Shown here: one piece after another, positions 790 through 36,717 of the stretch
Numbering within the stretch: the first letter of the stretch is position 1
Layout: each line of letters begins with the position of its first letter
Assembly (NCBI GenBank): GCA_017936005.1
Contig: JAGBGK010000062.1
Span: 1 to 42,392 of the forward strand
DNA from: Tidjanibacter sp.
Lineage (GTDB): Bacteria > Bacteroidota > Bacteroidia > Bacteroidales > Rikenellaceae
Length of the DNA: 42,392 nucleotides
Direction: 5' to 3'
Notes under the pieces: model-generated
Seen by the model: the letters and a program-made list of their open reading frames with translations, nothing else
Told to the model about the DNA's origin: nothing
Database searches by the model: none
Translations under genes and position numbers: made by a program

Positions 790-823
790 GTCGACCGTCA
801 ACCGTCGACCGTCGACCGTCGAC
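790..823. repeat. Heptanucleotide tandem array (GTCGACC unit)
   Basis: About five copies of a 7-base unit, GTCGACC with one GTCAACC variant, fill most of the 47-base gap between the DUF2400 and trmN6 genes. The same unit, or its complement GGTCGAC/GGTTGAC, occurs near 9490, 19780, 20000, 30860 and 35140. Confidence 0.85.
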
Positions 824-827
824 GGGA

Positions 828-1604
828 CTATTCATTAATTACTCTGTGTGAGATACCTGCTCCAAAGAGTGCAAAATCGTATTTCACGGGGTCCTCGGGG
901 TCGAACTCCCTCAGTGTGGAGGTAATCTCCTCCACCGCTTTCCAATCGTTCTGTTTGCGCTCCAAGAGTCCCAAGCCACGCCCCACATTACCGCTGTGCA
1001 CATCGAGGGGTAGGTATAGGGCCGAGGAGGGTATCCTCTCCCACAGGCCGAAGTCCACGCCGTGGGGGTCACGACGCACCATCCAACGGAGATACATATT
1101 GAGCCTCTTACAAGCCGCACCTTTGGCTATGGACGAGAGGTGTTTCTCGCTACGTTGTGGGTGGGGAAAATCAAAAAACTCCTTGCGGAAATCGGCCAAC
1201 ACGAGGCGCATATCCTCCGACTTCTCCCAACGGCTCTGGAACCACTCGCCCAGCGAGCCGCACTCACCGCACAATCTTCGGAGGGCCAGCACGAAGCACC
1301 TCAAATCTTCGCCATTAAAGGTGCGGTGAACGTAGGAGCTGAGGCACTCCAACTCACTCTCCGACGCGCCCATAACAAAGTCGTAGGGCCTGCGGTCGAG
1401 GTAGTCCATCATACGATTGGCACTCTTGACAATGGCTTTGCGGTTGCCCCACGCTATGGTGGCGGCCAGCAGACCACTAACCTCCTTGTCCAACGGGTTG
1501 GAGAAGGAGTGGGGTATGGATATGGGGTCCGGCTCTATGAAGTCCACACAGTCGTAGTGGAGGTGGAGCTCGTCGAGGAGTTCTTTAAGTTCGGGTTTGG
1601 TCAT
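828..1604 (-). CDS. TIGR02757 / DUF2400 family protein
   Basis: A 258-residue protein recognised as the DUF2400 (TIGR02757) family common in Bacteroidetes. Visible family features are LLAATIAWGNRK near residue 45, a central Cys-containing helical region, and the C-terminal block DVHSGNVGRGLGLLERKQND followed by a conserved segment ending PVKYDFALFGAG. The family appears related to helix-hairpin-helix DNA glycosylase folds, but no biochemical role is established to my knowledge, so no function is assigned. It starts 14 bases after the stop of the ABC transporter gene, which supports co-transcription. Length is normal for the family. Confidence 0.85.
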   Translation of the reverse strand: MTKPELKELLDELHLHYDCVDFIEPDPISIPHSFSNPLDKEVSGLLAATIAWGNRKAIVKSANRMMDYLDRRPYDFVMGASESELECLSSYVHRTFNGEDLRCFVLALRRLCGECGSLGEWFQSRWEKSEDMRLVLADFRKEFFDFPHPQRSEKHLSSIAKGAACKRLNMYLRWMVRRDPHGVDFGLWERIPSSALYLPLDVHSGNVGRGLGLLERKQNDWKAVEEITSTLREFDPEDPVKYDFALFGAGISHRVINE

Positions 1605-1618
1605 AGCTATTTTGGTGT

Positions 1619-2302
1619 TTACTCGGCACTCTGCTGTTGCAACTCTCCATCTACGATTGTGAGCCTACGGTCGCTCATTGCCGCCAACTCGCCATCGTGG
1701 GTAACCACCACAACCGTAAGCCCAAGTCTATCCCTCAGGTCGAAAAAGAGGCGGTGAATCTCACCCCTTGTGCGAGTGTCGAGGTTGCCCGAGGGCTCGT
1801 CGGCAAGGAGTAGGTGTGGGTGGTTTATCAACGCACGCGCAATGGCAACCCTCTGTTGTTCGCCACCGGAGAGTTGTGAGGGTTTGTGTGAGAGCCTCTC
1901 GGAAAGGCCCACCAACGCCAACAACTCCCTCGCTTCGGCCTCCACCTCACCCTTATTACGGCCGGCAATCAAGGCTGGGATGCAGACGTTTTCCAGAGCC
2001 GAAAATTCGGGCAATAGGTAGTGGAATTGGAACACAAGGCCCACACGTTGGTTGCGGAAATCGGCAGCGGCATCCGAACCAAGAGTGCCAACATCCACAC
2101 CATCGACCACCACACGCCCCTCGTCAAACGAGGAGAGTGCACCAATGGCGTGAAGGAGGGTTGTCTTGCCCGCACCGCTGGGGCCTACAATGGCAACCAC
2201 CTCGCCACGTCCAATCTCCATAGAAACACCTTTGAGGACTTCGAGCTCGCCATAACGCTTGCGCAGTCCTTCAACTTTGATAATGCTGTTGTGTATTGTC
2301 AT
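1619..2302 (-). CDS. lolD: LolD-type ABC transporter ATP-binding protein
   Basis: A 227-residue ATPase of the LolD/MacB-like group, which pairs with FtsX-type permeases; LolD drives release of lipoproteins from the inner membrane. Walker A is GPSGAGKTT (about residues 40-48), the signature is [15 protein letters not shown], and Walker B is [12 protein letters not shown]. The frame is open to 2398, but the extra N-terminal codons overlap folP and look uncharged with family sequence. The ATG at 2302 overlaps the folP TGA as ATGA, which suggests translational coupling. No permease gene is adjacent, so the exact partner (LolCE or another FtsX-like pair) cannot be read here and the symbol is a best guess. 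Confidence 0.8.
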
Positions 2303-3126
2303 AACCTGTGTGTTTTTTCGAACATATCCACCGTGGCCCTCGCCTCGGCAACATCGTGTACTCTCAGCACCGCCGCACCGCCACACAACGCCTCCCAATG
2401 GAGTGCTGTGGTAGCAGCAAGTGTTGCGTTGTCGGTGGGTTGTGTTCCCAAACTCTTGTATATAAAACTCTTGCGCGAAATGCCAACCAACACGGGGTAA
2501 CCCAATGCGGTAATCTCACCTATTCCACGCATCAGTTCGTAGTTCTGCTCCACATTTTTGGCAAAGCCAAAGCCGGGGTCAATAATTACCTCCCCAACGC
2601 CCTTCGAGGTGAGCCACTCGGCCCTGCGTGCGAGGTACTCCCTCACCTCGGCTACCACATCGGCATACTCCACCGGTGCGTGCATACTCTGCGCTCCGCC
2701 AATGGTGGTGCCTACGGTGTGCATCGCCACCATAGGTGCGCCCCAATGGGCCACCACATCAACCATACGTTCGTCGGCCTCGCCTGCTGTGATGTCGTTG
2801 ATGATGATGTCACTCCACCTCGACAGCACCGCTTCGGCAACCTCGCTGCGGAAGGTGTCAACCGAAATATGCACCTCGGGAGCCACCCTGCGGGCCTGCT
2901 CCACAGCCGAGAGTACCCTGCGCAACTCCTCTTCCACGGCCACCTCCACAGCACCGGGGCGTGTGGAGTAGCCACCAATATCTACAATGTCGGCACCCTG
3001 AGCAACCACCTCTGCCACCCTACGGGCCACAGCCTCCTGGCACTCCACTCGGCTGGGAGCATAGAACGAGTCGGGCGTGGCATTCACAATGGCCATCACT
3101 TTGCGATATGGTGCGGGATGTTTCAT
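2299..3126 (-). CDS. folP: Dihydropteroate synthase
   Basis: FolP condenses 6-hydroxymethyl-7,8-dihydropterin pyrophosphate with p-aminobenzoate to make dihydropteroate in the cytosolic folate pathway. The N-terminal signature VMAIVNATPDSFY and the second signature block IVDIGGYSTRPGA are clear. Later motifs are ISVDTFR, IINDITAG, IIDPGFGFAKN and LVGISRKSF. The ATG at 3126 shares its A with the coaE TGA (TGATG); a GTG at 3129 is the alternative start. The 3' end overlaps the start of the ABC transporter gene by four bases. At 275 residues the length is normal. The close overlaps on both sides indicate one transcript. Confidence 0.95.
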   Translation of the reverse strand: MKHPAPYRKVMAIVNATPDSFYAPSRVECQEAVARRVAEVVAQGADIVDIGGYSTRPGAVEVAVEEELRRVLSAVEQARRVAPEVHISVDTFRSEVAEAVLSRWSDIIINDITAGEADERMVDVVAHWGAPMVAMHTVGTTIGGAQSMHAPVEYADVVAEVREYLARRAEWLTSKGVGEVIIDPGFGFAKNVEQNYELMRGIGEITALGYPVLVGISRKSFIYKSLGTQPTDNATLAATTALHWEALCGGAAVLRVHDVAEARATVDMFEKTHRL

Positions 3127-3716
3127 CACTTTTTCAACTCTCTAACCCACTTATCAAGCGCCTCCACTTGTGGTAGTAGGGGCTCCACCCCGTCGGCATT
3201 GACGACAAAATCTGCCCTCTTTGCGAACTCCTCTCCACTCATTTGGCGAGCCATACGTTCCCTGATCTGTTCGGGCGTAGCTCCATCACGGGCCACACAC
3301 CTCTGCACCCTTATCTCATCGGGGGCCACCACTGCCACGCTCACATCGTAGTGCCCCTCCAATGGGGAGGAGAAGAGGAGCGCACTTTCGAGCACAACGT
3401 AGGGGCCACTCTGACAGGCCACCCACTGCTCGTAGTCCTCCACCACTCGTGGGTGAACAATGGCGTTGAGCCGGCCCAATAGCTCCTTGTCGGCAAAGGC
3501 CCTCTGGGCGATGTAGGGGCGATTGAGCACACCCTCCTTGTAGGCTTCGGGGCCGAAGAGAGCCTCGACCTCGGCAACCACTTGGGGGTGGGAGTTCATA
3601 ATCTCCTTGGCACGGGAGTCGCTGTCATAGACCTCCACGCCGCCCACCTCGGCAAGCAGCCTGCACACGGTACTCTTACCGCTACCAATTCCACCCGTTA
3701 TGGCAAGTCGCTTCAT
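3126..3716 (-). CDS. coaE: Dephospho-CoA kinase
   Basis: CoaE phosphorylates the 3'-hydroxyl of the ribose in dephospho-CoA, the last step of coenzyme A synthesis. The P-loop GGIGSGKST lies at residues 8-16. It is followed by a DSDSRAKEI segment equivalent to the D-x-D-x-x-A block, the NAIVHPRV region, VLESALLFSS, and the lid-type R-rich segment ERMARQMS. Its length of 196 residues is typical. It lies 12 bases downstream of the YbbR-like gene, an arrangement often seen in Bacteroidetes, and its stop overlaps folP. Confidence 0.95.
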   Translation of the reverse strand: MKRLAITGGIGSGKSTVCRLLAEVGGVEVYDSDSRAKEIMNSHPQVVAEVEALFGPEAYKEGVLNRPYIAQRAFADKELLGRLNAIVHPRVVEDYEQWVACQSGPYVVLESALLFSSPLEGHYDVSVAVVAPDEIRVQRCVARDGATPEQIRERMARQMSGEEFAKRADFVVNADGVEPLLPQVEALDKWVRELKK

Positions 3717-3728
3717 CGTTTAGGACTG

Positions 3729-4145
3729 TTAGTTGTCAATTTGCACGTAGGGCATACGGCTCACCGACACAACCTTGATGTCGGCATTGCGGATGGAGAT
3801 GGCATTGAGGAGCGACTCCTGCCCCACCTCCCACGTGTTCTCCTCGCCCTCTACGGGTGTGAGTTCCACATCACCACGTTTGAGTTTCACGGGTTTGCGC
3901 TTGAAGTAACGGGCCGAAAGGATGTTGTGGCCGCTACCCTGCACCACACAGGTTACCCTATGTCGGTCGCCCTCAACACTCACCACCACCGGCACCTCGG
4001 CCGTGTAGGAGTACTGCAACTTCGACACATACCACAGCACAAACGACAAGCCCAGCATCACCAAAAACAATGGCGTAACCTTGCGCCCGATGTGGGCCAC
4101 ACAAAAATCCTTAACCTTCAAAAAAATATCGCTCAACTTTTTCAT
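3729..4145 (-). CDS. YbbR-like membrane-anchored protein (short form)
   Basis: A 138-residue protein with a basic N-terminal segment, one predicted transmembrane helix (about residues 23-41, TPLFLVMLGLSFVLWYVS), and an extracytoplasmic beta-rich tail. Position immediately before coaE and the WYVSKLQYSYTAEVPV transition after the helix match the YbbR-like proteins found upstream of coaE in Bacteroidetes. Those I recall are about twice as long with several YbbR repeats, whereas this one has room for about one. The assignment rests on context plus the anchor region. In other phyla YbbR is linked to c-di-AMP cyclase control, which cannot be inferred here. Confidence 0.65.
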   Translation of the reverse strand: MKKLSDIFLKVKDFCVAHIGRKVTPLFLVMLGLSFVLWYVSKLQYSYTAEVPVVVSVEGDRHRVTCVVQGSGHNILSARYFKRKPVKLKRGDVELTPVEGEENTWEVGQESLLNAISIRNADIKVVSVSRMPYVQIDN

Positions 4146-4182
4146 AGCCTTGTTGTTTTATTTTTCTTGCCCCGTAGTCAGC

Positions 4183-4223
4183 GACAACTGATAACTGATA
4201 ACTGATAACTGACAACTGACAAC
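4183..4223. repeat. Heptanucleotide tandem array (AACTGAT/AACTGAC unit)
   Basis: Nearly six units with exact 7-base spacing, three AACTGAT then AACTGAC variants, sit in the 80-base gap between ruvA and the YbbR-like gene. The array ends only two bases before the ruvA stop codon. It has the same period as the GTCGACC arrays but a different unit. Confidence 0.85.
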
Positions 4224-4225
4224 TT

Positions 4226-4825
4226 CTACAACTGTTTGAGGGCCAAGCGGATGACAACCTCCACCTCGGCCGAGGGATTCTCTTTGAGCACCCTCTTAAC
4301 AACCTTCTCCGAGGCAGCCTTACCGAAGCCCAGCATACCGAGTGCTGCAACAGCCTCCGTGTAGACCTCCGAAGATACAGCCACAGGAGCAGACACATCG
4401 GCCGACAGAGCACCACCCGCAACCACAGCAGCAACCTTATCCCTCAGGTCAACAATAATCTTCTGTGCCGTTTTCAGGCCGAGGCCCTTCACATTTTTCA
4501 GCAACACGGCATTCTCGGTGGATATGATGGTCGATAGTTCCGAGGGGGTGTAGGTCGAAAGTATCATACGGGCCGTTCCGCCACCCACTCCCGACACCCC
4601 AATAAGCAGTCGGAAGAGGTCCCTCTCGGTGCGCTCGGCAAAACCGTAGAGTTGCTGGGTGTCCTCCCTGACAACGTAGTGTACATAGACAAGTGCTTCT
4701 TCCCTACCCTCCAAAGCGGTGTAGGTCTGCAACGATATGGCCACAATATAGCCCACGCCGCCACACTCCACAACGGCATAGGTGGGTGTCAGTTCGGCAA
4801 TGGCTCCTCTCAAATAGTCGTACAT
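4226..4825 (-). CDS. ruvA: Holliday junction branch migration protein RuvA
   Basis: RuvA binds four-way DNA junctions and recruits the RuvB motor in recombinational repair. The N-terminal OB-fold starts MYDYLRGAIAEL. The tandem helix-hairpin-helix region contains LIGVSGVGGGTARMILS and LKNVKGLGLKTAQKIIVDL (about residues 70-125). The C-terminal domain that contacts RuvB ends VVIRLALKQL. The 199-residue length is normal. GVSGVGGG replaces the more usual GVxGVGPK in the first hairpin, a mild change. It is the first gene of the operon running to trmN6; a -7 box lies at 4853-4860. Confidence 0.95.
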   Translation of the reverse strand: MYDYLRGAIAELTPTYAVVECGGVGYIVAISLQTYTALEGREEALVYVHYVVREDTQQLYGFAERTERDLFRLLIGVSGVGGGTARMILSTYTPSELSTIISTENAVLLKNVKGLGLKTAQKIIVDLRDKVAAVVAGGALSADVSAPVAVSSEVYTEAVAALGMLGFGKAASEKVVKRVLKENPSAEVEVVIRLALKQL

Positions 4826-4852
4826 AGTTCAAAAAGTATGTTTATAATATGG

Positions 4853-5661: not shown

Positions 5662-6825
5662 ATGAACTCGCTATTCCCATTCATCGACAAGGTCGAGAGG
5701 CTCCGTGAGTCCGACCCACGCATGGCGCAACTAATAGAACGCTTCGGGTACATCGAGCGCAACACCCAACGCCCACTCTTTGGAGCTCTTGTAGAGAGCA
5801 TAGTGAGTCAACAGGTGGCCTCCGCATCGGCCGAGAGGGTGGTGCGTAGGATTGCCACCGCAACAGCACACGATATCACCACCGCAACCATAGCATCACT
5901 TGGCACAGAGGGGCTGAAAAGGTGCGGAGTGTCGGCTCGCAAGGCCGAGTGGATTATGGCAGCAGCCGAGAGGTTTGCCGAGGGGGAATTTGAGGAGGAA
6001 ACCCTCAAAAAATTGAGCAACGAGGAGGTCATCGAGAGGCTGACATCGCTGGGAGGCGTTGGAAGGTGGACGGCAGAGATGATGCTCATCTTCTCGCTTG
6101 GCAGGGAGGATGTACTTCCTACGGGGGATTTGGGTATACGCAAGGCTCTTGCAGTCCTCTATGGCGAGCGTAGGCTCACAGCCAAAAGGTGGGCACACTA
6201 CCGCAGGCTCTTCGCTCCCCACTGCTCCATTGCCTCGTTCTACCTCTGGGCCTACGCCAACAACCTGCCCAAGAAGATGACGGAGGTAACCATCCGTCCG
6301 CTCACTTTCGGCAGGCTGAAAGATAGGCGCATAGCCTACGAATACTACCCCACCCCGCGTGGCGAATTGCTTATTGCGTCCACTTGTAAGGGCGTGTGCC
6401 GCGTGGCCTTTGCCGACGACAGAGAAGAGGCACTCGACGAGTTGAGGGCGGAGTTCAGGGGCGCCACCTTCGAGCAACGCAGCGAGGAGTGCCACAAGCA
6501 GATACTGCGCGCCATTGAGCGCAAGAGTTCCACGGGTATAACCCTCTATTTGCAGGGTACCCCCTTCGAGCGCAAGGTATGGAGGGAGGTGGTGAAGATA
6601 CCCTACGGTATCACGGCAAGCTATGCCGACATTGCCGCACGCACGGGCTACACCAAGGCCTACCGCTCGGTGGGCAACGCCGTGGGAGCCAACCCCGTAG
6701 CGATTGTTATCCCCTGCCACCGCGTCATCCACGCCGACGGTACGCTGGGCGACTACAACGCCGGCGCGGAGAAGAAACACACCCTCATCGAACGAGAGAG
6801 AGAAATTAACAACATTATATTATAG
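5662..6825 (+). CDS. Fused 3-methyladenine DNA glycosylase (AlkA-type) and methylated-DNA-cysteine methyltransferase (Ogt-type)
   Basis: Two alkylation-repair enzymes in one 387-residue chain. Residues 1-205 form a HhH-GPD glycosylase: IVSQQVASASA near 47-57, the helix-hairpin-helix LTSLGGVGRWTAEMM at 127-141, and TGDLGIRKAL with catalytic Asp156. Residues 225-387 form an O6-alkylguanine-DNA alkyltransferase: FERKVWREVVKIPYGITASY, then PCHRV at 351-355 with acceptor Cys352. The first domain would excise N3-alkylated purines and the second would take alkyl groups from O6-guanine. No frameshift separates them, so it is a true fusion. No Ada-type regulatory domain is visible. It heads a run of genes to 8838 with small gaps. 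Confidence 0.92.
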   Translation: MNSLFPFIDKVERLRESDPRMAQLIERFGYIERNTQRPLFGALVESIVSQQVASASAERVVRRIATATAHDITTATIASLGTEGLKRCGVSARKAEWIMAAAERFAEGEFEEETLKKLSNEEVIERLTSLGGVGRWTAEMMLIFSLGREDVLPTGDLGIRKALAVLYGERRLTAKRWAHYRRLFAPHCSIASFYLWAYANNLPKKMTEVTIRPLTFGRLKDRRIAYEYYPTPRGELLIASTCKGVCRVAFADDREEALDELRAEFRGATFEQRSEECHKQILRAIERKSSTGITLYLQGTPFERKVWREVVKIPYGITASYADIAARTGYTKAYRSVGNAVGANPVAIVIPCHRVIHADGTLGDYNAGAEKKHTLIEREREINNIIL

Positions 6826-8880: not shown

Positions 8881-8894
8881 GGCAGAAAGGGAAT

Positions 8895-8959
8895 TTAGGG
8901 AGTATAGGGAGGTTAAGGAATTGCAAGTGCCTTATCACTAACCTCACTATATTCCCTAA
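8895..8959. repeat. Long imperfect inverted repeat
   Basis: Arms of 21 bases at 8895-8915 and 8939-8959 are complementary at 19 of 21 positions around a 23-base loop. The left arm consists of TTAGGGA/GTATAGGGAGG units like those at 36-60. No T run follows, so it is not a standard terminator; it is more likely a repeat element copied in inverted orientation. Confidence 0.7.
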
Positions 8960-8980: not shown

Positions 8981-9475
8981 ATGAAAATTGGTATAATATC
9001 AGACCTCCACGGCACCTTCGACGACCACTTGGCGAGATTTCTCGACGAGGTGGACGAGGTGTGGTGTGCGGGCGACATTGGCGGACAAGGCGAGGCTTTG
9101 GAGCCACTGCGAGCTATGGGTAAGAGAGTGGTGGCAGTGTATGGCAACATCGACGACCACACAATGAGGCTCACCTACCCCGAGTGGCAGTGCTTCGAGA
9201 GGGAGGGCGCACGGGTGCTGATGACCCACATTGGCTTTCGTGGTGGCCGCCCACTGCCGAGTGTGGCAAGCCGACTACGCACTCTACGGCCCACCATTTT
9301 CGTCTGCGGCCATAGCCACATCCTGCGTGTCTACTACGACAAGACCTACGGGGTGCTGTGTATCAACCCCGGAGCTGCGGGTTGCTATGGTTTCCACAGC
9401 GTGCGTACCGCTGTGCGCTTCGACCTCGTTGGGGGCGAGCCCTCCAACCTTGAAGTGTGGGAACGAAAAAGATGA
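8981..9475 (+). CDS. YfcE/MJ0936-type metallophosphoesterase
   Basis: A 164-residue calcineurin-like phosphoesterase with the full metal-binding set: SDLHG (Asp8, His10), GDI (Asp32), GNID (Asn56), MTHIG (His83) and GHSH (His111, His113). It is cytosolic, with no signal peptide. Relatives such as E. coli YfcE hydrolyse phosphodiesters in vitro with poorly defined natural substrates, so the biological role is open. It is separated from DUF3127 by a 142-base repeat-rich gap and shares a bidirectional terminator with the convergent locus at 9584. Confidence 0.9.
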   Translation: MKIGIISDLHGTFDDHLARFLDEVDEVWCAGDIGGQGEALEPLRAMGKRVVAVYGNIDDHTMRLTYPEWQCFEREGARVLMTHIGFRGGRPLPSVASRLRTLRPTIFVCGHSHILRVYYDKTYGVLCINPGAAGCYGFHSVRTAVRFDLVGGEPSNLEVWERKR

Positions 9476-9486: not shown

Positions 9487-9526
9487 TTGACAATTGACGG
9501 TCGACGGTTGACGGTTGACGGTCGAC
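9487..9526. repeat. Heptanucleotide tandem array (TTGACGG/TCGACGG unit)
   Basis: About five 7-base units alternating TTGACGG and TCGACGG directly abut the terminator at 9527. Confidence 0.85.
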
Positions 9527-12018: not shown

Positions 12019-12035
12019 ATTCTTTTCTTTTTGTC

Positions 12036-12163
12036 AAACGTCAAACGTCGTTTCTTTCTATTTTATAACAAGGTTGCAACTCTCTTTTTACTCCGGTATC
12101 CCTCCACGTCTATCCATCGACGTCAGACCATTGACGTTAGACGTTAGACGTTGGACGTTAGAC
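12036..12163. repeat. Intergenic heptanucleotide repeats (AAACGTC and GACGTTA units)
   Basis: The gap between susD and the small lipoprotein gene holds two short 7-base arrays, a two-unit AAACGTC array near 12036-12050 and a four- to five-unit GACGTTA array at about 12131-12163. The bases between them show no gene. The GACGTTA array ends next to the susD stop codon. Confidence 0.75.
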
Positions 12164-12164
12164 A

Positions 12165-13643
12165 TTAATTTACATAACCATCGTTTTGTTTCATCGACTC
12201 GTTGGTATCCATCTCGGTTTGGCAGATGGGCAGTGCGAAGCGGTAGTCGGGCCAAGCAAGGCTCTTCATCGTGGAGGTGGTAGAAGCACCCCTTTCGAGG
12301 TTGTGGCCCAAGCGGGTGATGTCGAACAAGCGGTGGCCCTCCATATTGAGCTCCCTAACCCTCTCGTCCTCAATAATCTTCAACAACTCGTCAGCGTCCT
12401 TATAGGTGAGTGTAATCTCCTCCACCGTCTTACCCATAGCCCTTGCTTGCAGAGCCTTGATGTCCTCGGCAGCCCTCGCCAAGTCGGGCGAACTCTTGCG
12501 GCACAAAGCCTCGGCGTGGATGAGGTACATCTCCGAGCCACGCAGAATGAAGAGGTCTGTACGGCGGTTGCGCTCGTCGGTAATGCGCTTATAGGCACAA
12601 TACTTACAGAAGGCATTATAGGAAGGCTGTGTCATAGTGCTCTCCATACTCTCGGGGATGTAGGTGAGCAGGTCGGCACGAATATCGCCACTCTCAAAGA
12701 GGCTGTGTAGTTTCTTGGCAGGCTCCACCTTGATAATACGGCTGGGGTCGCACAGCGCGTTCATCGAGCTCGACAAGTCGTAGCCATTGATGCGGAAGAT
12801 GGTCTCCTCGCCCACTACCGAAGCAGCATCGCGGAACATATCAATATACTTATCGTGGGGAGTGAGTGTGATCTCGCCCATAACCTCCTCGGCCATCTTA
12901 GCAGCATTCTCCCAATCGCCCTTGTGGAGATAAACCCTCGCTTTGAGAGCCTTACAAGCCAGCGCACTTGCATAGTAGACACTCTCGGGCTGCTGGGCAA
13001 TGGCAAACAGCGCAATTGCATCATCGCAGTCTTTGAGCACCTGTGCGTAGGTCTGTGCCACGGTGGAGCGAGCAATGACATCCTCAAAGCCCGGTACCCA
13101 CGTCACAACAGGAACTCCAAGGTGCGAAGCATCGGGAGTGTAGATGTAGGAGTGGCCATAGACTTGGCAGAGGTCGAATGTTACCAGCGCACGAATGAAG
13201 AGCGCCTGAGCAAAAATCATATCAATCTCCTTCTTGTTCTGCGCAAAACTCTCATAAAGAGGCTCGCCATAGTAGAGGATGTTGTTTGCATTGGAGATAA
13301 CATCATATCCCTTGCGCCACACATTACGAGGGAAGCCTGCATCGTCGGCAGGAACACTCAGGTAGTCATAGATACGGGTTATCTGCTCGTTGGCATTCAG
13401 GCGCACAACATCGACCATATCACCCATAATCTCCGGGTAGCGCACATACTCGTCGTCGTAGAACTCGGCCAGCGTGCGGTGAAGACCCCTGCCTGCGGCT
13501 CGAAGTCCGTCAAGCTCGGCAAAGAAGGTCTCAATGGTACTCTTACCAATGGTGGGCACCTCCAAGAAGCTCTCGCAACTACTCAACGACACAGTCGCCG
13601 AGAGTGCCAATACCATAAATATATTTTTAATTTTCATATTCAT
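12165..13643 (-). CDS. SusD/RagB-family nutrient-binding outer-membrane lipoprotein
   Basis: A 492-residue lipoprotein (SLSSC lipobox) of the SusD family, the surface lid that delivers ligand to a SusC channel. The N-terminal segment CESFLEVPTIGKSTIETFF is typical. The tetratricopeptide-like helical core includes FAQALFIRALVTFDLCQVYG and the run around DCDDAIALF. The C-terminal block GHRLFDITRLGH and the end RFALPICQTEMDTN are family hallmarks. It lies 27 bases downstream of susC and is clearly part of the same operon. The ligand is unknown; the metalloprotease gene upstream suggests peptides. Confidence 0.95.
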   Translation of the reverse strand: MNMKIKNIFMVLALSATVSLSSCESFLEVPTIGKSTIETFFAELDGLRAAGRGLHRTLAEFYDDEYVRYPEIMGDMVDVVRLNANEQITRIYDYLSVPADDAGFPRNVWRKGYDVISNANNILYYGEPLYESFAQNKKEIDMIFAQALFIRALVTFDLCQVYGHSYIYTPDASHLGVPVVTWVPGFEDVIARSTVAQTYAQVLKDCDDAIALFAIAQQPESVYYASALACKALKARVYLHKGDWENAAKMAEEVMGEITLTPHDKYIDMFRDAASVVGEETIFRINGYDLSSSMNALCDPSRIIKVEPAKKLHSLFESGDIRADLLTYIPESMESTMTQPSYNAFCKYCAYKRITDERNRRTDLFILRGSEMYLIHAEALCRKSSPDLARAAEDIKALQARAMGKTVEEITLTYKDADELLKIIEDERVRELNMEGHRLFDITRLGHNLERGASTTSTMKSLAWPDYRFALPICQTEMDTNESMKQNDGYVN

Positions 13644-19685: not shown

Positions 19686-20036
<351 letters not shown>

Positions 20037-20072
20037 AACGCAGAGAGCGGGATGAATGCAAGGAATACAAGA

Positions 20073-20115
20073 AAACCACCTCCGAAGTTTACCAACGTAA
20101 ATGAGGAGGTGGTTT
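20073..20115. terminator. Hairpin with perfect 11-bp stem
   Basis: AAACCACCTCC (20073-20083) pairs with GGAGGTGGTTT (20105-20115) around a 21-base loop. The T tail is better on the minus strand, so it may be a second terminator for leftward transcription from the small RNA region. Confidence 0.55.
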
Positions 20116-20159
20116 ATCGCAGTATGACGCCGCAGTCGCCCGCTATTGTGCGTTTTTGG

Positions 20160-27320: not shown

Positions 27321-27337
27321 ATTTGAATTTTGAATTT

Positions 27338-29005
27338 ATGAATAACAGACTTTTATCCGGTGCGGGCATTGCGTTGCCCGTGGCAGCAGCACTCACGGGG
27401 TGTGCCGAGAAGGCCCCCGAGAGGCCCAACATTATTATTATGATGACCGACGACCACACGTGCAGGGCGTTGAGTTGCTACGACAGTAGCCTGATGCACA
27501 CCCCCAACCTCGACCGTTTGGCCGAAGAGGGTATGCTCTTCGAGAACTGCTATGTGGCCAACGCCATATCGGGCCCTTCGAGGGCGTGTATCCTCACGGG
27601 TAAGTATAGCCACGCCAACGGCTTTACGGACAACTCACGCACCTTCGATGGCGACCAACAAACATTCCCCAAGTTGCTCCACGAGAGTGGCTACCAGACC
27701 GCAATGATTGGCAAGTGGCACCTCAACAGCGAGCCACAGGGCTTCGACTATTGGAGCATACTGATTGGTCAGGGCGAATACTATGCGCCACAATTCTGGG
27801 AGCAGGATGGCGTTGTGGTCGAGGAGGGCTACGTCACGGACATCATCACCGACAAGGCCATCGACTTTATTGACAACTGCGACACAGAGCGTCCCTTTGC
27901 GATGCTCTACTACCACAAGGCACCCCACCGCAACTGGATGCCCGCACAGCGACACCTCGGTATCTACAACGACCACACCTTCCCCGAACCAGCCACCCTG
28001 CTGGACGATTACAGCGGACGAGGCACCGCTGCACGAGAGCAGGAGATGGAGATTGGAACGCATATGTGGCCCGAGTGGGACCTCAAAGTGATGACTCGCG
28101 AGCAGCTCGAAGCACCCTACGACTTGGGCGATTGGAGCAACGCCAACGTGGCCGATGTGAGCCGTGCCAACAACCACCGAGCCTCAGTCGAGCAGTTCAA
28201 AGCTGCGTGGGACCGTATGACCCCGGAGGAGAAGGCCCGTTGGGACGAGGCCTACGCTCCCCGCATCGAGGAGTGGAAAGCGATGCAGAAGCGTGGAGTA
28301 AGCGAGGAGGAGATTGTCCGCTGGAAATATCAGCAGTATATGAGGGACTACTGTGCCGTCATCAAGGCCGTTGACGAGAACGTGGGCCGACTGATGGCTC
28401 ACTTGGAGAGCATTGGCGAGCTGGACAACACCATCATCATCTACACCTCCGACCAGGGTTTCTTCCTCGGCGAACACGGCTGGTTCGACAAGAGGTTTAT
28501 GTATGAGGAGTGCCACCGCACACCCCTCTTAGTGCGCTACCCGAAGGCTGTGAAGGCCGGCACACGCACCAAAGCACTCGCTATGAACATTGACTTTGCC
28601 CCCACCCTGCTCGAATTTGCCGGTGTGGAGATACCCGAGGATATTCAGGGCCGCTCGCTGGTGCCCGTGCTCACCTCGCGCAAGGGCGCAGTGCCCACAG
28701 ATTGGAGGGAGGCGGTCTATTACCACTACTACGAGTACCCCTCGTGGCACTCGGTGAAACGACACTACGGCATCCGCACCAACGACTACAAACTCATCCA
28801 CTTCTATAACGACGTGGACGAGTGGGAACTCTACGACCTGCGAGAGGGTGTGCAGGGTGAGATGAACAACGTTTACAACCACCCCGACTATGCCGACACA
28901 AGGGCCGAACTACACACCCTGCTCCAAGAGGTGCAAAGGGAGTGTGGCGACACCGACCCAATGGAGAGAGAGTTTGAGTGGTTCAAGGGAGCAGGAAGCC
29001 TTTGA
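27338..29005 (+). CDS. S-type sulfatase 2 (N-acetylglucosamine-6-sulfatase-like lipoprotein)
   Basis: A 555-residue lipoprotein sulfatase (Cys22 in LTGC) if started at the ATG at 27338. RPNIIIMMTDDHT carries the metal aspartates 38-39, and SGPSR at residues 78-82 is the formylglycine motif with Ser78. IGKWHL, HKAPHRNWMPAQRH and SDQGFFLGEHGWFDKR are strong signatures of the group containing mucin-desulfating and N-acetylglucosamine-6-O-sulfatases. Lipid anchoring places it in the envelope. Together with sulfatase 1 it suggests attack on a sulfated host or algal glycan, with mucin or glycosaminoglycan as candidates. Confidence 0.9.
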   Translation: MNNRLLSGAGIALPVAAALTGCAEKAPERPNIIIMMTDDHTCRALSCYDSSLMHTPNLDRLAEEGMLFENCYVANAISGPSRACILTGKYSHANGFTDNSRTFDGDQQTFPKLLHESGYQTAMIGKWHLNSEPQGFDYWSILIGQGEYYAPQFWEQDGVVVEEGYVTDIITDKAIDFIDNCDTERPFAMLYYHKAPHRNWMPAQRHLGIYNDHTFPEPATLLDDYSGRGTAAREQEMEIGTHMWPEWDLKVMTREQLEAPYDLGDWSNANVADVSRANNHRASVEQFKAAWDRMTPEEKARWDEAYAPRIEEWKAMQKRGVSEEEIVRWKYQQYMRDYCAVIKAVDENVGRLMAHLESIGELDNTIIIYTSDQGFFLGEHGWFDKRFMYEECHRTPLLVRYPKAVKAGTRTKALAMNIDFAPTLLEFAGVEIPEDIQGRSLVPVLTSRKGAVPTDWREAVYYHYYEYPSWHSVKRHYGIRTNDYKLIHFYNDVDEWELYDLREGVQGEMNNVYNHPDYADTRAELHTLLQEVQRECGDTDPMEREFEWFKGAGSL

Positions 29006-29180
29006 AAATGGAAAATGGAAGCAAATGCGAGTAAGCGAGAGCAGAGATTGCTTGCAAGCTATGCCGAGCGGGAGCATTTTAGAGCAAGCAAAGCTTGGTC
29101 AATTGAAAATTGAGGGCATATCATAAAACTAACATAAAAAACAGCTAATGACTAATAGCCAACAGCTAACAGCAAACAAT
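29006..29180. repeat. Intergenic repeats before the DUF3604 gene
   Basis: GGAAAAT units (29006-29018), a unique-looking stretch with GCTTGCAAGC and GAGCAAGCAAAGCTTG (29050-29100), GAAAATT units (29102-29113), and a 7-base CAGCTAA/TAGCCAA array at about 29140-29178 that abuts the ATG at 29181. No gene is seen. Confidence 0.7.
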
Positions 29181-30849: not shown

Positions 30850-30926
30850 TCTCCACCGTCAACAGTCAACCGTCAACCGTCAACCGACGATTGACAGCCG
30901 ATGATTGACAACCGACGATTGAAAAT
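30850..30926. repeat. Heptanucleotide tandem arrays (GTCAACC and GATTGAC units)
   Basis: About four GTCAACC units are followed by degenerate GATTGACAGCC/GATTGACAACC units, starting five bases after the DUF3604 stop. Confidence 0.8.
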
Positions 30927-30939
30927 TCTCCTCCTTTTT

Positions 30940-30965
30940 CACGGGTATCTTTTTTGTTACCCGTG
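30940..30965. repeat. Hairpin repeat CACGGGTA/TACCCGTG
   Basis: Arms at 30940-30947 and 30958-30965 enclose a T-rich loop. It is the same family as 1-26. A pyrimidine-rich inverse copy of the 9-base repeat follows (CCCTTTCTGCC). Confidence 0.75.
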
Positions 30966-31022
30966 ATGACAGGGAGGTCCCTTTCTGCCTTTTGGCTCTT
31001 TTGACAACACAAAACATTCGCT

Positions 31023-32138: not shown

Positions 32139-32167
32139 TATTAACCCACACACAAGAGAGAAGAACG

Positions 32168-33745: not shown

Positions 33746-33774
33746 GTTGACCTAAGGAAGACCGACACTCTATG

Positions 33775-33813
33775 CCGAGCCGACAGCCCACAAGGTTGTC
33801 GGCTCGGTTGGTT
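33775..33813 (+). terminator. Terminator after the fimbrillin-like gene
   Basis: CCGAGCCGACA (33775-33785) pairs perfectly with TGTCGGCTCGG (33797-33807). The T tail is interrupted (TTGGTTT). Confidence 0.75.
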
Positions 33814-33831
33814 TATGTGCTGGGATGCCTG

Positions 33832-33868
33832 TCCATTTTCCATTTTCCATTTTCAATTTTCAATTTAT
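33832..33868. repeat. Heptanucleotide tandem array (TCCATTT/TCAATTT unit)
   Basis: Three TCCATTT units then two TCAATTT units, exactly 7 bases apart. It ends six bases before the -7 box at 33874 and so covers the expected -33 region of that promoter. Confidence 0.85.
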
Positions 33869-33873
33869 TACCC

Positions 33874-33881
33874 TATATTTG
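33874..33881 (+). promoter_or_regulatory. Bacteroidetes -7 box for the carboxyspermidine dehydrogenase gene
   Basis: TATATTTG, 67 bases before the ATG at 33949. The upstream region that should hold the -33 box is the repeat array. Confidence 0.65.
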
Positions 33882-33948
33882 TAGGTTGGAAAATTTGTAG
33901 CAACAAAAACAAACGATATATAAACACACAAAAACAGACCTAACGACT

Positions 33949-35139
33949 ATGTGTAAAGTACTCATTATCGGTGCAGGCGGCGTTGGTACCGTCGTGGCAC
34001 ACAAGGTGGCCGCAAATCCCGTATTCTCGGAGATTATGTTGGCCAGCCGCACAAAAAGTAAATGCGACCAAATCGCTGCCGCAATCGGTGGCGACCGCAT
34101 CCAGACCGCCAAGGTGGATGCCGACAGCGTGCCCGAATTGTGCGAGTTGATGCGCTCGTTCAAGCCCGACATCGTTATCAACGTAGCACTCCCCTATCAG
34201 GACCTCACCATTATGGATGCCTGCTTGGAGTGTGGTGTGAACTACCTCGACACGGCCAACTATGAGCCCCTGGATGAGGCACACTTTGAGTACTCGTGGC
34301 AGTGGGCCTACCGTGAGAGGTTTGAGAAGGCCGGACTCACCGCCATCCTCGGTTGCGGTTTCGACCCCGGTGTGAGCGCAATATTCACCGCCTATGCTGC
34401 CAAACACCACTTCGACGAGATTCACTACCTCGACATCGTGGACTGCAACGCCGGCAACCACGGCAAGGCTTTCGCCACCAACTTCAACCCCGAAATCAAC
34501 ATCCGTGAGATTACCCAGAAAGGCCGCTATTGGGAGAATGGCGATTGGGTTACCACCGGCTCGCTCGAAATACACAAGACACTCAACTACCCCAACATCG
34601 GCCCGAGGGAGAGCTACCTGCTCTACCACGAGGAGTTGGAGAGCCTTGTGCTGAACTTCCCCACCATCAAGAGGGCAAGGTTCTGGATGACCTTCGGTCA
34701 GGAGTACCTCACCCACCTGAGGGTTATTCAGGATATCGGTATGGCACGCATCGACCCCATTATGTACAACGGACAGGAGATTGTGCCCATCCAATTCCTC
34801 AAAGCAGTGCTGCCCGACCCCAAAACTCTCGGTGAGAACTACCACGGCGAGACCTCCATCGGTTGCCGCATCAGGGGTATCAAGGATGGCAAAGAGAAGA
34901 CATATTATATCTACAACAACTGCGACCACGCAGAGGCCTACAAGGAAACCGGTACGCAGGCCGTGAGCTACACCACAGGTGTACCCGCCGCCCTCGGTGC
35001 TGCAATGTTCGCCAAAGGCTTGTGGGTAAAACCCGGTGTACACAACGTGGAGGAGTTCGATCCCGATCCATTCTTGGCCGAGCTCGGACCTCAGGGCCTG
35101 CCTTGGGTTGAGTTGCACGATGTGGACTTGGAACTGTAA
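33949..35139 (+). CDS. Carboxynorspermidine/carboxyspermidine dehydrogenase (saccharopine dehydrogenase family)
   Basis: A 396-residue NADPH-dependent enzyme that condenses aspartate semialdehyde with a diamine (putrescine for carboxyspermidine, diaminopropane for carboxynorspermidine). The Rossmann motif is IIGAGGVGTV (residues 6-15), followed by ASRTKSKCDQIA for NADP binding. INVALPYQDLTIMDACLECG and GCGFDPGVSAIFTAYA are typical of this subgroup. The next gene encodes the matching decarboxylase, which confirms the role. This route to spermidine replaces the SAM decarboxylase pathway in many gut Bacteroidetes. Confidence 0.93.
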   Translation: MCKVLIIGAGGVGTVVAHKVAANPVFSEIMLASRTKSKCDQIAAAIGGDRIQTAKVDADSVPELCELMRSFKPDIVINVALPYQDLTIMDACLECGVNYLDTANYEPLDEAHFEYSWQWAYRERFEKAGLTAILGCGFDPGVSAIFTAYAAKHHFDEIHYLDIVDCNAGNHGKAFATNFNPEINIREITQKGRYWENGDWVTTGSLEIHKTLNYPNIGPRESYLLYHEELESLVLNFPTIKRARFWMTFGQEYLTHLRVIQDIGMARIDPIMYNGQEIVPIQFLKAVLPDPKTLGENYHGETSIGCRIRGIKDGKEKTYYIYNNCDHAEAYKETGTQAVSYTTGVPAALGAAMFAKGLWVKPGVHNVEEFDPDPFLAELGPQGLPWVELHDVDLEL

Positions 35140-35187
35140 GTCGACCGTCAACCGTCGACCGTCGACCGACAACCGATAACCGACAAA
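35139..35187. repeat. Heptanucleotide tandem array (GTCGACC to GATAACC units)
   Basis: GTCGACC, GTCAACC, GTCGACC, GTCGACC, then GACAACC, GATAACC and GACAAAT, all in 7-base register. It shows drift of the unit along one array. It starts at the stop codon of the dehydrogenase gene. Confidence 0.88.
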
Positions 35188-35191
35188 TTTT

Positions 35192-35231
35192 AGGGGCCTT
35201 AAAGACCTTCGGGACATTAAAGCCCCTTTTT
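35192..35231 (+). terminator. Terminator between the two spermidine genes
   Basis: AGGGGC..TTAA (35192-35200) pairs with TTAA.GCCCCT (to 35227), one bulge on each side, followed by five T. It may reduce read-through into the decarboxylase gene. Confidence 0.7.
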
Positions 35232-35274
35232 GCTAATCAAAAAAATACATTAGACGTTAGACAAAGAAGTAATT

Positions 35275-36405
35275 TTGAATTACTACAACACCGTTCCGTC
35301 GCCTTGCTACGTTTTGGAGGAGGCGGAGTTGATGAAAAATATGGCGGTCATTGACCGTGTGCGCAAGGAGGCCGGCGTGGAGATTATCGTGGCCCTGAAA
35401 GCCTCGGCTATGTGGAGCATCTTCCCCATCCTGCGTGAGCACTCCGACGGCGCAACGGCAAGTTCGTTGGCCGAGGCAAGGCTCGTCTATGAGGAGTATG
35501 GCCAGAGGGCACACACCTACGCACCCGTATATACCGACTCCGAGTGGGAGGAGATTATGAGTTACAGCGACTACATAACCTTCAACTCTCTGGGCCAATG
35601 GCATAGGTTTGCTCCGCAGGCTATGCTGAGGGGTATATCGTGCGGCCTGCGCATCAACCACGAGTACTCCACCGTGGAGACCGACCTCTACAACCCCGCA
35701 TCGCCCACCAGCCGCTTGGGTGTGAGGGCCGAGGTGCTCACCGAGCTGCCCGAAGGTATCGAAGGCCTCCACTTCCACTCTCTCTGCGAGAGCGATGCGG
35801 AGGACTTGGTGGCCACATTGGAGGTCGTGGAGCAGAAGTTCGGACACTACCTCGACCGCATCAAGTGGCTCAATATGGGCGGAGGACACCTTATGACAAG
35901 GAAGGGATACAATGTTGACCTGCTCATCAGCACTCTCCGTGAGTTCAAGAGCCGACACCCCCACCTGCGCATCATCCTCGAACCCGGCAGTGCCTTCACT
36001 TGGAGGACGGGTACCCTTGTAGCCACCGTGGAGGACATCGTGGAGGGCGGTGGCGAGCGTACAGCCGTGCTTAATGTGTCGTTTGCGTGCCATATGCCCG
36101 ACTGCTTGGAGATGCCCTACAAGCCCGCAGTGGTGGGTGCACACGACCCCGAGGAGGGCGAGGAGAGGTGGCGTATCGGTGGCAACAGTTGCTTGGCAGG
36201 CGATTGGGTGGGCCATTGGGCCTTCGACAAACGCCCCGAGGTTGGCGATAGGATAGTCTTTGAGGATATGATACACTACACTATGGTCAAGACCACTATG
36301 TTCAACGGAGTGTCGCACCCCTCGATTGCCATTGCCCACACCAACGGAGAGGTGGAGATTGTACGCCGCTTCGGCTATGAGGACTACAAAAACCGAATGG
36401 GATAG
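35275..36405 (+). CDS. nspC: Carboxynorspermidine/carboxyspermidine decarboxylase
   Basis: A 376-residue PLP enzyme (alanine-racemase fold) that removes CO2 from carboxy(nor)spermidine to make (nor)spermidine. The PLP lysine is Lys42 in IIVALKASAMWS. HFHSLCES, LNMGGGHLMTRKGY, LEPGSAFTWRTG (236-246), SFACHMPDCLEMPY and GGNSCLAGD (Cys306) are family motifs; EPGSAFTW is the Bacteroidetes form. There is no ATG at the conserved start: the best start is TTG at 35275, with an in-frame TAG at 35251 inside a TAGACGT repeat just upstream. The gene may be translated poorly or from this TTG. The partner dehydrogenase gene is 135 bases upstream. Confidence 0.92.
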   Translation: MNYYNTVPSPCYVLEEAELMKNMAVIDRVRKEAGVEIIVALKASAMWSIFPILREHSDGATASSLAEARLVYEEYGQRAHTYAPVYTDSEWEEIMSYSDYITFNSLGQWHRFAPQAMLRGISCGLRINHEYSTVETDLYNPASPTSRLGVRAEVLTELPEGIEGLHFHSLCESDAEDLVATLEVVEQKFGHYLDRIKWLNMGGGHLMTRKGYNVDLLISTLREFKSRHPHLRIILEPGSAFTWRTGTLVATVEDIVEGGGERTAVLNVSFACHMPDCLEMPYKPAVVGAHDPEEGEERWRIGGNSCLAGDWVGHWAFDKRPEVGDRIVFEDMIHYTMVKTTMFNGVSHPSIAIAHTNGEVEIVRRFGYEDYKNRMG

Positions 36406-36419
36406 AGGGAGTTCAAACT

Positions 36420-36717
36420 TGAAAATTGAAAATTGAAAATTGAGAATTTACCCTCGCCTACGTTAGGAGAGGGTGCCGAAGGCGGGTGAGGTCTGTAAAA
36501 GGGCAGAAAGAGCAGAAAGAGAATGGAAAATTCAAAATTCTCCTTCTCCTTAAACTCCTTAAATTCCCAAAACTCTCGGGTAACAAAAAAGATACCCGCG
36601 AAGCAAAGCAAAGGAAAGTAGAAAACTCTGCGCCAACGGCGCACCTTAATTTTCCATTTTCCATTTTCAATTTATAAAGTCGTTAGACGATTGACGTTAG
36701 ACGTTAGACCATTAAAT
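36420..36717. repeat. Composite intergenic repeat island
   Basis: In order this holds: a GAAAATT array (36421-36441); the palindrome CCCTCGCCTACGTTAGGAGAGGG at about 36450 followed by TGCCGAAGGCGGGTGAGGT; the 9-base GCAGAAAGA array (36500-36520); CTCCTTAAA units (36545-36565); the CGGGTA/TACCCG hairpin (36577-36598); a small palindrome TGCGCCAACGGCGCA (36628-36642); a TCCATTT array (36650-36674); and a GACGTTA array (36690-36710) ending at the next start codon. No gene is seen. The same modules occur at 19686-20036. Confidence 0.85.

What the first reader, a model, noticed from the sequence alone, without database searches (positions are those of the whole stretch)
790..36710. Intergenic arrays share a strict 7-base period but use different units
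At least ten gaps hold short tandem arrays in 7-base register: GTCGACC (790, 35139), AACTGAT (4183), ATTAGCT (8841), TTGACGG (9487, 19781, 19996), GACGTTA (12131, 36690), GAAAATT or GGAAAAT (19690, 36421, 42373), CAGCTAA (29140), GTCAACC (30850) and TCCATTT (33832). The unit drifts within single arrays, as at 35139-35187 from GTCGACC to GATAACC. The arrays are never inside recognised genes and often touch a stop or start codon. Heptanucleotide short tandem repeats (STRR) are known in heterocystous cyanobacteria; AACTGAC is a rotation and complement of a unit I recall from there. A constant period with a changing unit suggests a copying or slippage process that fixes length and not sequence.
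Basis: partly seen in the sequence, partly recalled or inferred. Interest (0 to 1): 0.72.

Follow-up and report, generated by a model that had tools for sequence, protein, structure and literature searches.

The report
Shuffled seven-base repeats between bacterial genes
In a gut bacterium of the genus Tidjanibacter many gaps between genes hold short repeats that step by seven bases; they come from a small shared vocabulary, change length in whole steps and seem to be swapped between gaps together with small hairpin elements, so they look like a fast-moving repeat family rather than a new copying rule.

Summary
In 442 kb of the window's genome (Tidjanibacter sp., Rikenellaceae), period 7 gives 71 intergenic and 2 coding arrays; the next period, 9, gives 16 and 3. 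Twenty dinucleotide shuffles average 0.0 arrays, against 61. Arrays sit in variable intergenic slots with dispersed hairpin modules (24 of 48 array gaps, 5 of 215 others). Between two species 96% identical, some arrays differ by 7, 14 or 21 bases, 5 of 18 shared slots keep the same dominant unit, and in 10 of 26 array slots another slot of the same genome matches better than the orthologue (1 of 48 array-free gaps; 7 of 26 with arrays masked). An 80-bp hairpin element, M3, lies in 7-base register inside arrays (25 of 27 copies, 2 tied). Best reading: known heptanucleotide repeats, grown by slippage and spread by exchange between slots. Period-7 dominance and slippage are in print; slot exchange here and M3 were not found in my searches.

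The parts
790..823 (+). F1 array (GTCRACC), next to the stop of the - strand gene 828-1604
4186..4224 (+). F4 array, AACTGAT/AACTGAC = rotation of TAACTGA; 1 nt from the stop end of gene 4226-4825 (-)
   Evidence: unit as in PMC4679880
8840..8872 (+). weak F5 array (AGCTATT), 69% matches
   Evidence: only; fails the score of 9
8888..8922 (+). period-9 array AGGGAATTT
9496..9526 (-). F1 array (reads GACGGTY on +), 20 nt after the stop of gene 8981-9475
12033..12049 (+). short array GTCAAAC
12133..12167 (-). F2 array (GTCYAAC; reads GACGTTA on +)
   Evidence: related array in the orthologous, shorter gap of G013
19689..19731 (+). F3 array (GAAAATK)
19732..19778 (+). module M1, hairpin CTCCCCTAAGTTAGGGGAG..., dispersed
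19780..19811 (-). F1 array
19838..19871 (+). F3 array
19883..19935 (+). module M2 region (CGGGTATTAAAAAAGATACCCG), dispersed
19909..19986 (+). period-9 array AGGGCAGAA; overlaps the end of the M2 region
20000..20029 (-). F1 array
20032..20157 (+). module M5, ends AAAAACGCA ... TGCGTTTTT (inverted), dispersed
27322..27337 (+). short F3-like array (TTTGAAT)
29004..29020 (+). F3 array, left flank of M3
29021..29100 (+). M3, 80-bp element ending in a hairpin, inside the F3 array
29101..29115 (+). F3 units, right flank of M3 (AATTGAAAATTGAGG)
29140..29178 (+). F5 array (AACAGCT), 71% matches
   Evidence: from 29157
30858..30886 (+). F1 array; same slot in G010 with changed units, in G013 with other content
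30930..30966 (-). module M2
33832..33866 (-). F3 array (reads TCCATTT on +)
35140..35186 (+). F1 array drifting GTCGACC to GATAACC, starting at the base after the stop of gene 33949-35139
36415..36448 (+). F3 array
36498..36521 (+). period-9 array AAAGAGCAG
36568..36629 (+). dispersed module region around M2 (CGGGTAACAAAAAAGATACCCG)
36627..36645 (-). module M4 (GGTGCGCCGTTGGCGCAGA on the - strand)
   Evidence: place counted from the array at 36649
36649..36673 (-). F3 array, inverted relative to 36415
36686..36709 (-). F2 array (reads GACGTTA on +)
42371..42392 (+). F3 array at which the contig ends

Best explanation
The arrays are a lineage-amplified set of intergenic heptanucleotide tandem repeats of the kind known from cyanobacteria, Xanthomonas and Beggiatoaceae. 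Shown: (1) period 7 dominates and the arrays are intergenic; (2) units come from a few families with one to three variable letters; (3) some arrays differ between close species by whole heptamers; (4) the slot between two genes persists while its content, arrays plus hairpin modules, is replaced, often by content like that of another slot of the same genome. Inferred: copy number changes by replication slippage in 7-nt steps; slot contents spread by ectopic recombination or copying that uses the arrays (seen in 48 of 263 sampled gaps) as patches of homology, and in part by movement of the modules themselves; arrays survive mainly behind stop codons because little there selects against them. 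No regulatory role is needed to explain the data.
For: Period and place: (61 arrays inside 263 gaps, mean 0.0 over 20 shuffles). Vocabulary: 72 of 73 arrays fit one of three templates at 70% identity or more (the template fit is loose); in F1 position 4 is A 47% / G 45%, the other positions 91-99% fixed over 128 units; both GTCGACC and GTCAACC occur in G010, G013, G016 and G017 (listing). Counts in G000: 156 hits of (GTYRACC)x3 and 197 of the F3 pattern, 0 for both reversed controls (overlapping hits in one array counted separately). Slippage: clean differences of 7 (77 v 70, 38 v 45), 14 and 21 bases between G013 and G017; 6 of 15 indels inside arrays are multiples of 7 against 13 of 142 elsewhere, P 0.004. 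Exchange: a paralogous slot beats the orthologue in 10 of 26 array slots (G013 side) against 1 of 48 array-free gaps, P 6e-5; G017 side 10 of 26 against 2 of 48, P 3e-4. With the period-7 and period-9 arrays masked: 7 of 26 against 1 of 48 (P 0.002) and 7 of 26 against 2 of 48 (P 0.007). One clear case: slots L243:18161 and 19484 score 100 and 172 against each other within each genome but 57 and 39 against their orthologues. Modules: 24 of 48 array gaps against 5 of 215 others. Tolerated position: stop side preferred; arrays per kb 2.5 in convergent, 1.2 in co-directional and 0.7 in divergent gaps.
Against: No donor-recipient event was caught; exchange is inferred from similarity, and part of the paralogue signal is mobile modules (M3 itself at L243:3233) rather than conversion. 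Masking the arrays lowers 10 of 26 to 7 of 26. 9 of the 15 indels inside arrays are not multiples of 7 (some come from badly alignable pairs). Why 7 and not 6 or 8 is not explained by anything tested here. The same word (AATTGAN) in 50 of 173 Bacteroidales genera could also mean a sequence preference of slippage, or selection. Selection for fixed letters (a binding protein) is not excluded.
Confidence: 0.6

Rival explanations
1. Footprint slippage alone: each array is born where it stands because the replication machinery slips in 7-nt steps, whatever the sequence; no exchange between gaps.
For: Period 7 dominates in Tidjanibacter and in a sample of other Bacteroidales (33 of period 7, 7 or fewer for every other period from 5 to 12); whole-heptamer length differences; rare odd units exist (AAACAAC, ACTGCTG).
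Against: Independent births would give many unrelated units; here the F1, F2 and F3 words dominate. The variable letter is the same in arrays at many sites; CpG decay would make TTGA about as common as TCAA in F1, which it is not (C at position 3 is 99%). Slot contents match other slots better than the orthologue in 10 of 26 cases, 7 of 26 with arrays masked.
Confidence: 0.17
2. The arrays are binding sites for a protein acting on DNA or RNA (for instance a translational regulator, as proposed for TAACTGA repeats); the fixed letters are contact positions.
For: Near-invariant letters with one free position in F1.
Against: Arrays favour the stop side (17 of 43 within 15 nt, null 6.9), not the start side (8, null 7.0), and convergent gaps; 11 of 23 genomes of the genus show neither the F1 nor the F3 pattern; unit and content change between 96%-identical species. 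No gene set was tested for shared function.
Confidence: 0.1
3. The arrays are scars or targets of a mobile element: M3 makes a 7-bp target duplication, and repeated insertion and loss leaves tandem heptamers.
For: In 25 of 27 M3 copies tested the flanks join best in exact 7-base register, 2 tied with other shifts; 33 of 36 copies have flanking heptamers at least 6/7 identical, more than permuted flanks of the same subtype and genome (P 0.0005); a copy with one unit on each side exists (L199); one copy lies in a GTCTAAC array (L140:146).
Against: None of the copies listed lies in an F1 array, one of the commonest families; arrays occur in genomes where the M3 pattern was not found (G018, G020, G022) and in many other genera, where M3 was not sought. 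At L243:3233 the heptamers flanking M3 are not copies of the 7-mer at the empty site. M3 may simply insert into arrays, or be carried with them.
Confidence: 0.07
4. The pattern is chance or an assembly artefact.
For: The genome is a draft of 80 contigs with 88.8% estimated completeness, and contigs tend to end at arrays.
Against: 61 arrays observed, mean 0.0 over 20 shuffles; the same families in separately assembled species; repeats make assemblies break, they do not create arrays inside contigs.
Confidence: 0.01

Closest known systems
TAACTGA heptamer direct repeats (MacGregor 2015, PMC4679880: abstract, passages and section 10 read)
   Same: Heptanucleotide, intergenic, tandem, patchy across lineages incl. 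five Bacteroidetes; one window array has the same unit up to rotation (4186-4224); mixed heptamers in one gap; indels mostly in 7-nt increments between close Cyanothece strains.
   Different: In the genome studied most sets lie just before start codons and related heptamers are rare as repeats; here several families coexist, arrays favour the stop side, and hairpin modules are interleaved.
GGGAATC repeats of Xanthomonas and GGGGA(C/T)T repeats of Nostoc (Rehm 2015, PMC4692102: passages read)
   Same: Heptamers, mostly intergenic, nearer the 5' neighbouring ORF (28 v 160 nt on average), mostly between the same genes in sister species with strong length and sequence variation.
   Different: Those are G-rich and can fold into quadruplexes; none of the 73 arrays here holds GGG or CCC. 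That paper follows one motif per genus; several families coexist here. It finds its repeats at more conserved locations than controls, unlike the slots here.
Long simple sequence repeats of 5-11 nt (Mrazek 2007; not held in the library, known here only as cited by the two papers above)
   Same: Heptanucleotides reported as the most abundant class in most genomes; 7-nt polymerase footprint proposed.
   Different: Slot exchange and modules are not mentioned in the citations I read.
STRR heptanucleotide repeats of heterocystous cyanobacteria (recalled; named as fingerprints in an abstract listed)
   Same: Tandem heptamers dispersed in the genome (recalled).
   Different: Other phylum and, as far as recalled, other units.
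REP/MITE-type dispersed intergenic palindromes (recalled as a class)
   Same: Modules M1-M5 are short, dispersed and hairpin-forming or with inverted ends.
   Different: No Y1 (RAYT-type) transposase in any of the 12 genomes with the F3 pattern; M3 shows no terminal inverted repeats by eye.

Membership tests
Intergenic heptanucleotide tandem repeats (LSSR class) | period 7 over-represented against other periods | tested here: met
   71 intergenic arrays of period 7, 16 of period 9, 7 of period 14, at most 3 for any other period from 2 to 24; mean 0.0 in shuffles
Intergenic heptanucleotide tandem repeats (LSSR class) | located between genes | tested here: met
   71 of 73
Intergenic heptanucleotide tandem repeats (LSSR class) | copy number differs between close relatives in steps of 7 | tested here: met
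   7, 14 and 21 base differences between G013 and G017; 6 of 15 in-array indels are multiples of 7 v 13 of 142; the other 9 are not. Strains of one species could not be compared
TAACTGA repeats | direct repeats of TAACTGA | tested here: met
   window 4186-4224; the only such array of score 12 or more in the 442 kb sample; related AACTGAC at L056:19032
TAACTGA repeats | placed just upstream of start codons (as in the Beggiatoaceae genome studied) | tested here: not met
   the window array ends 1 nt from a stop codon; over all arrays no start-side excess
Cyanobacterial STRR | unit sequences of the cyanobacterial STRR families | not tested
   no cyanobacterial genome was searched
G-rich quadruplex heptamers (Rehm 2015) | runs of three or more G in each unit | tested here: not met
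   0 of 73 arrays contain GGG or CCC
REP elements with RAYT | Y1 transposase (PF01797) in the genome | tested here: not met
   0 of 12 genomes with the F3 pattern; 1 of 23 in the genus, G007, which has no F1 or F3 hits; several genomes are incomplete
Phase-variation repeats | array alters reading frame or promoter spacing | not tested
   arrays lie mostly outside genes and on the stop side; promoters were not mapped
One common heptamer template for all families (own idea) | families more alike than letter-shuffled units | tested here: not met
   P 0.18 to 1.0 for seven pairs

The most novel reading that the evidence does not exclude
Heptamer arrays are both landing sites and products of a minimal mobile element. 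M3 (about 80 bp, no open frame looked for, a hairpin at its 3' end whose two arms change together, no transposase known) enters at one phase of a heptamer array, duplicates exactly one 7-base unit, and on loss leaves the extra unit behind. The constant period would then be the target-duplication length of an unknown recombinase, which would explain a fixed length with a changing sequence in one step.
Probability: 0.06. Interest if true: 0.85.

Novelty: new variant of a known kind. Interest (0 to 1): 0.5.

Why it matters
Heptanucleotide repeats have been noted in scattered bacteria, by 2007 at the latest, without an agreed cause (as told in PMC4679880 and PMC4692102). Here two closely related species (96% identical) show the turnover: steps of 7, unit replacement and replacement of gap contents, with array-free gaps as an internal control. 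That makes two questions testable: whether slippage really prefers 7 nt, and whether short arrays act as recombination patches that reshuffle intergenic DNA. M3 offers a marker element whose insertion register can be measured. It also suggests why such genomes break at these places in assembly.

Tried and rejected
One common template for all units (a TCNA or TTGA core in shared register): the families are no more alike than letter-shuffled ones (P 0.18-1.0 for seven pairs), and neighbouring arrays share phase in only 4 of 9 pairs, three of those four having the same TGTTAT spacer, so one dispersed junction. Not supported.

TGA (a stop triplet) in every unit as a reason for the vocabulary: 15 of 25 array units from loci L062-L138 against 7.0 in shuffles (one of the 25 is an N stretch). 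A lead only; units are related by descent, so the null is too easy.

RAYT/REP origin of the modules: no Y1 transposase in the 12 genomes with the F3 pattern. Rfam: only a tRNA in the window at gathering scores. Plasmid or phage origin: no match for window:19680-20160 (BLAST's low-complexity filter was on).

Translation-start regulation as for TAACTGA: no start-side excess.

Target duplication for M3: not decided. At L243:3233 the empty site in G013 (TTTTTCAATTTATTTTGG) against the filled one in G017 fits either insertion of M3 with its heptamers or an in-register deletion; the outgroup gap (L059) carries other arrays, so the direction stays open. At L194 two relatives lack both M3 and heptamers; at L139 the relative has one and a half units.

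Mended on checking: the M3 register claim was 27 of 27, where ties counted for shift 0; one search gives 25 strictly best and 2 tied. The paralogue test was repeated with arrays masked because arrays of one family match each other anyway.

Dropped before counts: gap pairs with a flanking hit under 75% identity, on different records or out of range; gaps under 30 bases on either side, so 74 of 96 pairs entered the paralogue test; badly alignable pairs in the indel count; 1 of 73 arrays that fitted no template at 70% in the letter counts; M3 copies without a recognised right end or with short flanks (27 of 42 left ends used; 36 copies with another end pattern). The 42 left ends include one probable coding-sequence false hit (L198).


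Full report
Setting. The window is contig C1 (positions 1-42,392) of a draft genome of 1.97 Mb in 80 contigs. The closest named records that one search returned are metagenome-assembled Tidjanibacter (Rikenellaceae) from yak and sheep gut (89% and 91% for one protein). SusC/SusD-type proteins fit Bacteroidota. 22 other species of the genus are held, and the set of relatives held one of the same family and 16 of the same order.

Is it there? Yes. Over 442,392 bases, period 7 gives 71 intergenic and 2 coding arrays, period 9 gives 16 and 3, period 14 gives 7 and 0, and no other period from 2 to 24 exceeds 3 intergenic. Twenty dinucleotide-preserving shuffles of 263 gaps average 0.0 arrays, against 61. 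Genes were called with a home-made scorer (86% coding); the sampled contigs had been seen through repeat hits, which may inflate density.

What are the units? Reading both strands and all rotations, most arrays fall in F1 GTCRACC, F2 GTCYAAC and F3 (GAAAATT, GGAAAAT, GAGAATT, CAAAATT), with rarer TAACTGA-like and AGCTAAC-like ones. Sorted to the nearest of three templates, 26 arrays go to F1, 13 to F2, 33 to F3, and 1 fits none at 70% (the sorting forces rare units into a family). Within F1 one letter is free (A 47%, G 45%, T 8%) and the other six are 91-99% constant over 128 units. F2 varies mainly at one letter (position 4, 73%; three others at 86-88%), F3 at three (73-85%). The 70% cut adds to the constancy, but not to its concentration at one position. 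CpG decay would yield TTGA as often as TCAA in F1; TTGA is rare (C 99% at position 3). So sequence is not free. I first thought that all families shared one template; the test did not support it.

Where do they lie? Between co-directional genes 17 of 43 arrays are within 15 nt of the stop codon (null 6.9 +- 1.7), 8 within 15 nt of the start (null 7.0 +- 1.7); density is highest in convergent gaps (2.5 per kb) and lowest in divergent ones (0.7). This resembles the description of Xanthomonas heptamers (PMC4692102, passages) and differs from the Beggiatoaceae genome (PMC4679880).

Who has them? The F1 pattern (three units) hits 9 of 23 genomes of the genus and the F3 pattern 12 of 23 (one of them, G011, once); the other 11 have neither. 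AATTGAN x3 hits 59 of 247 genomes and 50 of 173 genera of the order. The reversed control of that pattern is itself a heptamer word and hits too: 31 of 247 genomes and 228 hits against 696, by my count of the table, 94 of the 228 in one genome (G166). The pattern fixes six letters and says nothing on other words. In 80 loci fetched around one gene (1.29 Mb), period 7 has 33 arrays and no other period from 5 to 12 more than 7; 9 of the 33 lie in two loci of array-bearing Tidjanibacter, L059 and L060.

Slots. Gap by gap, the window against G013, G017 and G010 shows, by eye, that gaps without arrays (the tRNA gap, promoters, terminators) mostly align, while gaps with arrays hold different arrays and modules between the same genes. 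Array gaps hold dispersed modules far more often than others (24 of 48 against 5 of 215; among gaps of 100 bases or more 23 of 39 against 5 of 102). The modules M1-M5 are short hairpins or have inverted ends, and several junctions with arrays recur.

Two close species. G013 and G017 share 122 orthologous genes in the sample, median 95.7% identity, and 96 orthologous gaps: 68 without arrays, 18 with arrays in both, 10 in one only. Of the 18, the best-matching dominant unit is the same in 5, alike at 5-6 of 7 letters in 11, unlike in 2 (one of the 5 is a T/G-rich low-complexity stretch, L187:4659). Clean length differences are 7, 7, 14 and 21. In-array indels are multiples of 7 in 6 of 15, elsewhere in 13 of 142 (P 0.004; without 1-nt indels 13 of 109, P 0.012). 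In 10 of 26 array slots the best match lies in another slot of the same genome rather than in the orthologue, against 1 of 48 array-free gaps on the G013 side and 2 of 48 on the G017 side. Arrays of one family match each other anyway, so I masked them: 7 of 26 against 1 of 48 (P 0.002) and 7 of 26 against 2 of 48 (P 0.007), with 2 of 26 on both sides at once instead of 8. What remains is largely matches of modules, which may move on their own. The clearest case of two slots evolving together is L243:18161 and L243:19484: local scores within a genome are 100 (G013) and 172 (G017), between orthologues 57 and 39. Only about a quarter to a third of each genome was held, so paralogue matches are undercounted. 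The stretches were mostly chosen around M3 copies and repeat hits, so the rate is not genome-wide; the array-free gaps come from the same stretches.

M3. An element of 79-81 bp (134 and 47 bp forms exist), starting GCAAATGCG and ending in a hairpin and GTC. Its left-end pattern (up to 2 mismatches) hits 32 times in G000, 39 in G016, 29 in G017, 23 in G013, 17 in G021, 14 in G005, 8 in G010, once in G019, and never in eight of the 16 genomes searched; the hit in G019 aligns with coding-like sequence conserved in G000. The right-end hairpin arms change together (CAAGC/GCTTG, AAAAC/GTTTT, CAAAC/GTTTG, CAGAC/GTCTG, AAAAT/ATTTT; alignment, read by eye, no formal covariation test). In 27 copies with both flanks, continuing the 7-base register with no base added or lost is strictly the best shift in 25 and tied in 2 (L141:13857 and L207, 3 of 7 matches each); 171 of 189 positions match, against 131.6 +- 5.3 when right flanks are permuted. 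With another end pattern 36 copies were scored: 33 have flanking heptamers at least 6/7 identical, and permutation within subtype and genome gives P 0.0005. One copy lies in a GTCTAAC array (L140:146). Whether M3 duplicates 7 bases or enters arrays without duplication is open.

How it works, in my judgement. Slippage changes copy number in steps of 7 (shown for several sites as length differences; slippage itself inferred). Exchange between slots spreads units and modules (shown as similarity; mechanism inferred, most simply ectopic recombination over shared heptamers, together with mobility of modules such as M3). Position behind stop codons fits tolerance. The choice of 7 is not explained; the polymerase-footprint idea is published and untested here.

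Literature. Eight searches gave two papers that I used, PMC4679880 (abstract, passages, section 10 read) and PMC4692102 (passages read); the rest I saw as listings only. Mrazek 2007 is not held. In these searches I found no description of heptamer slot exchange in Rikenellaceae nor of M3; most subscription journals are not covered.

Noticed in passing
window 42371-42392; starts of L039, L053, L055, L057, L058: Contigs often begin or end inside heptamer arrays: of 11 G000 stretches starting at base 1, 5 have an array beginning within the first 11 bases; the window also ends in one. The repeats probably cause the assembly breaks.
   Followed up: partly
window 19909-19986, 36498-36521, 36546-36575, 8888-8922: A second, period-9 class (units such as AGGGCAGAA, AAAGAGCAG, AGGGAATTT, CTCCTTAAA) shares the same slots; 16 intergenic and 3 coding arrays in the sample, and 18 intergenic in 60 kb of G005.
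   Followed up: partly
window 20032-20157; L039, L040, L041, L053 and others: Module M5, about 125 bp with ends AAAAACGCA / TGCGTTTTT, looks like a MITE; 13 copies listed. No transposase was sought for it.
   Followed up: no
L019:1420-1542 and L018:2626-2709: Palindromes (CAAATGCGAGTAGGCTTACTCGCATTTG; CAGATGCGAGTAAG..CTTACCCGCATCTG) resembling the left end of M3 lie in gaps beside the orthologue of window 35275-36405; M3 may derive from such a hairpin.
   Followed up: no
G021:C29:5351/5438, G021:C45:24518/24605, G017:C116:67622/67716, G016:C2:40612/40712: Tandem M3 copies whose starts are 87, 94 or 100 bases apart, i.e. separated by about one to three heptamers.
   Followed up: no
L187:1650-1768, L044:4512-4740: An M3-like variant (ends AACCCACCTTTGGTGGC ... 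CGCAACTT) sits in CTCAATT/CTCAACT arrays; not included in the M3 counts.
   Followed up: no
window 5662-6825: One protein with a DNA glycosylase-like N-terminal part and a C-terminal O6-methylguanine-DNA methyltransferase.
   Followed up: no
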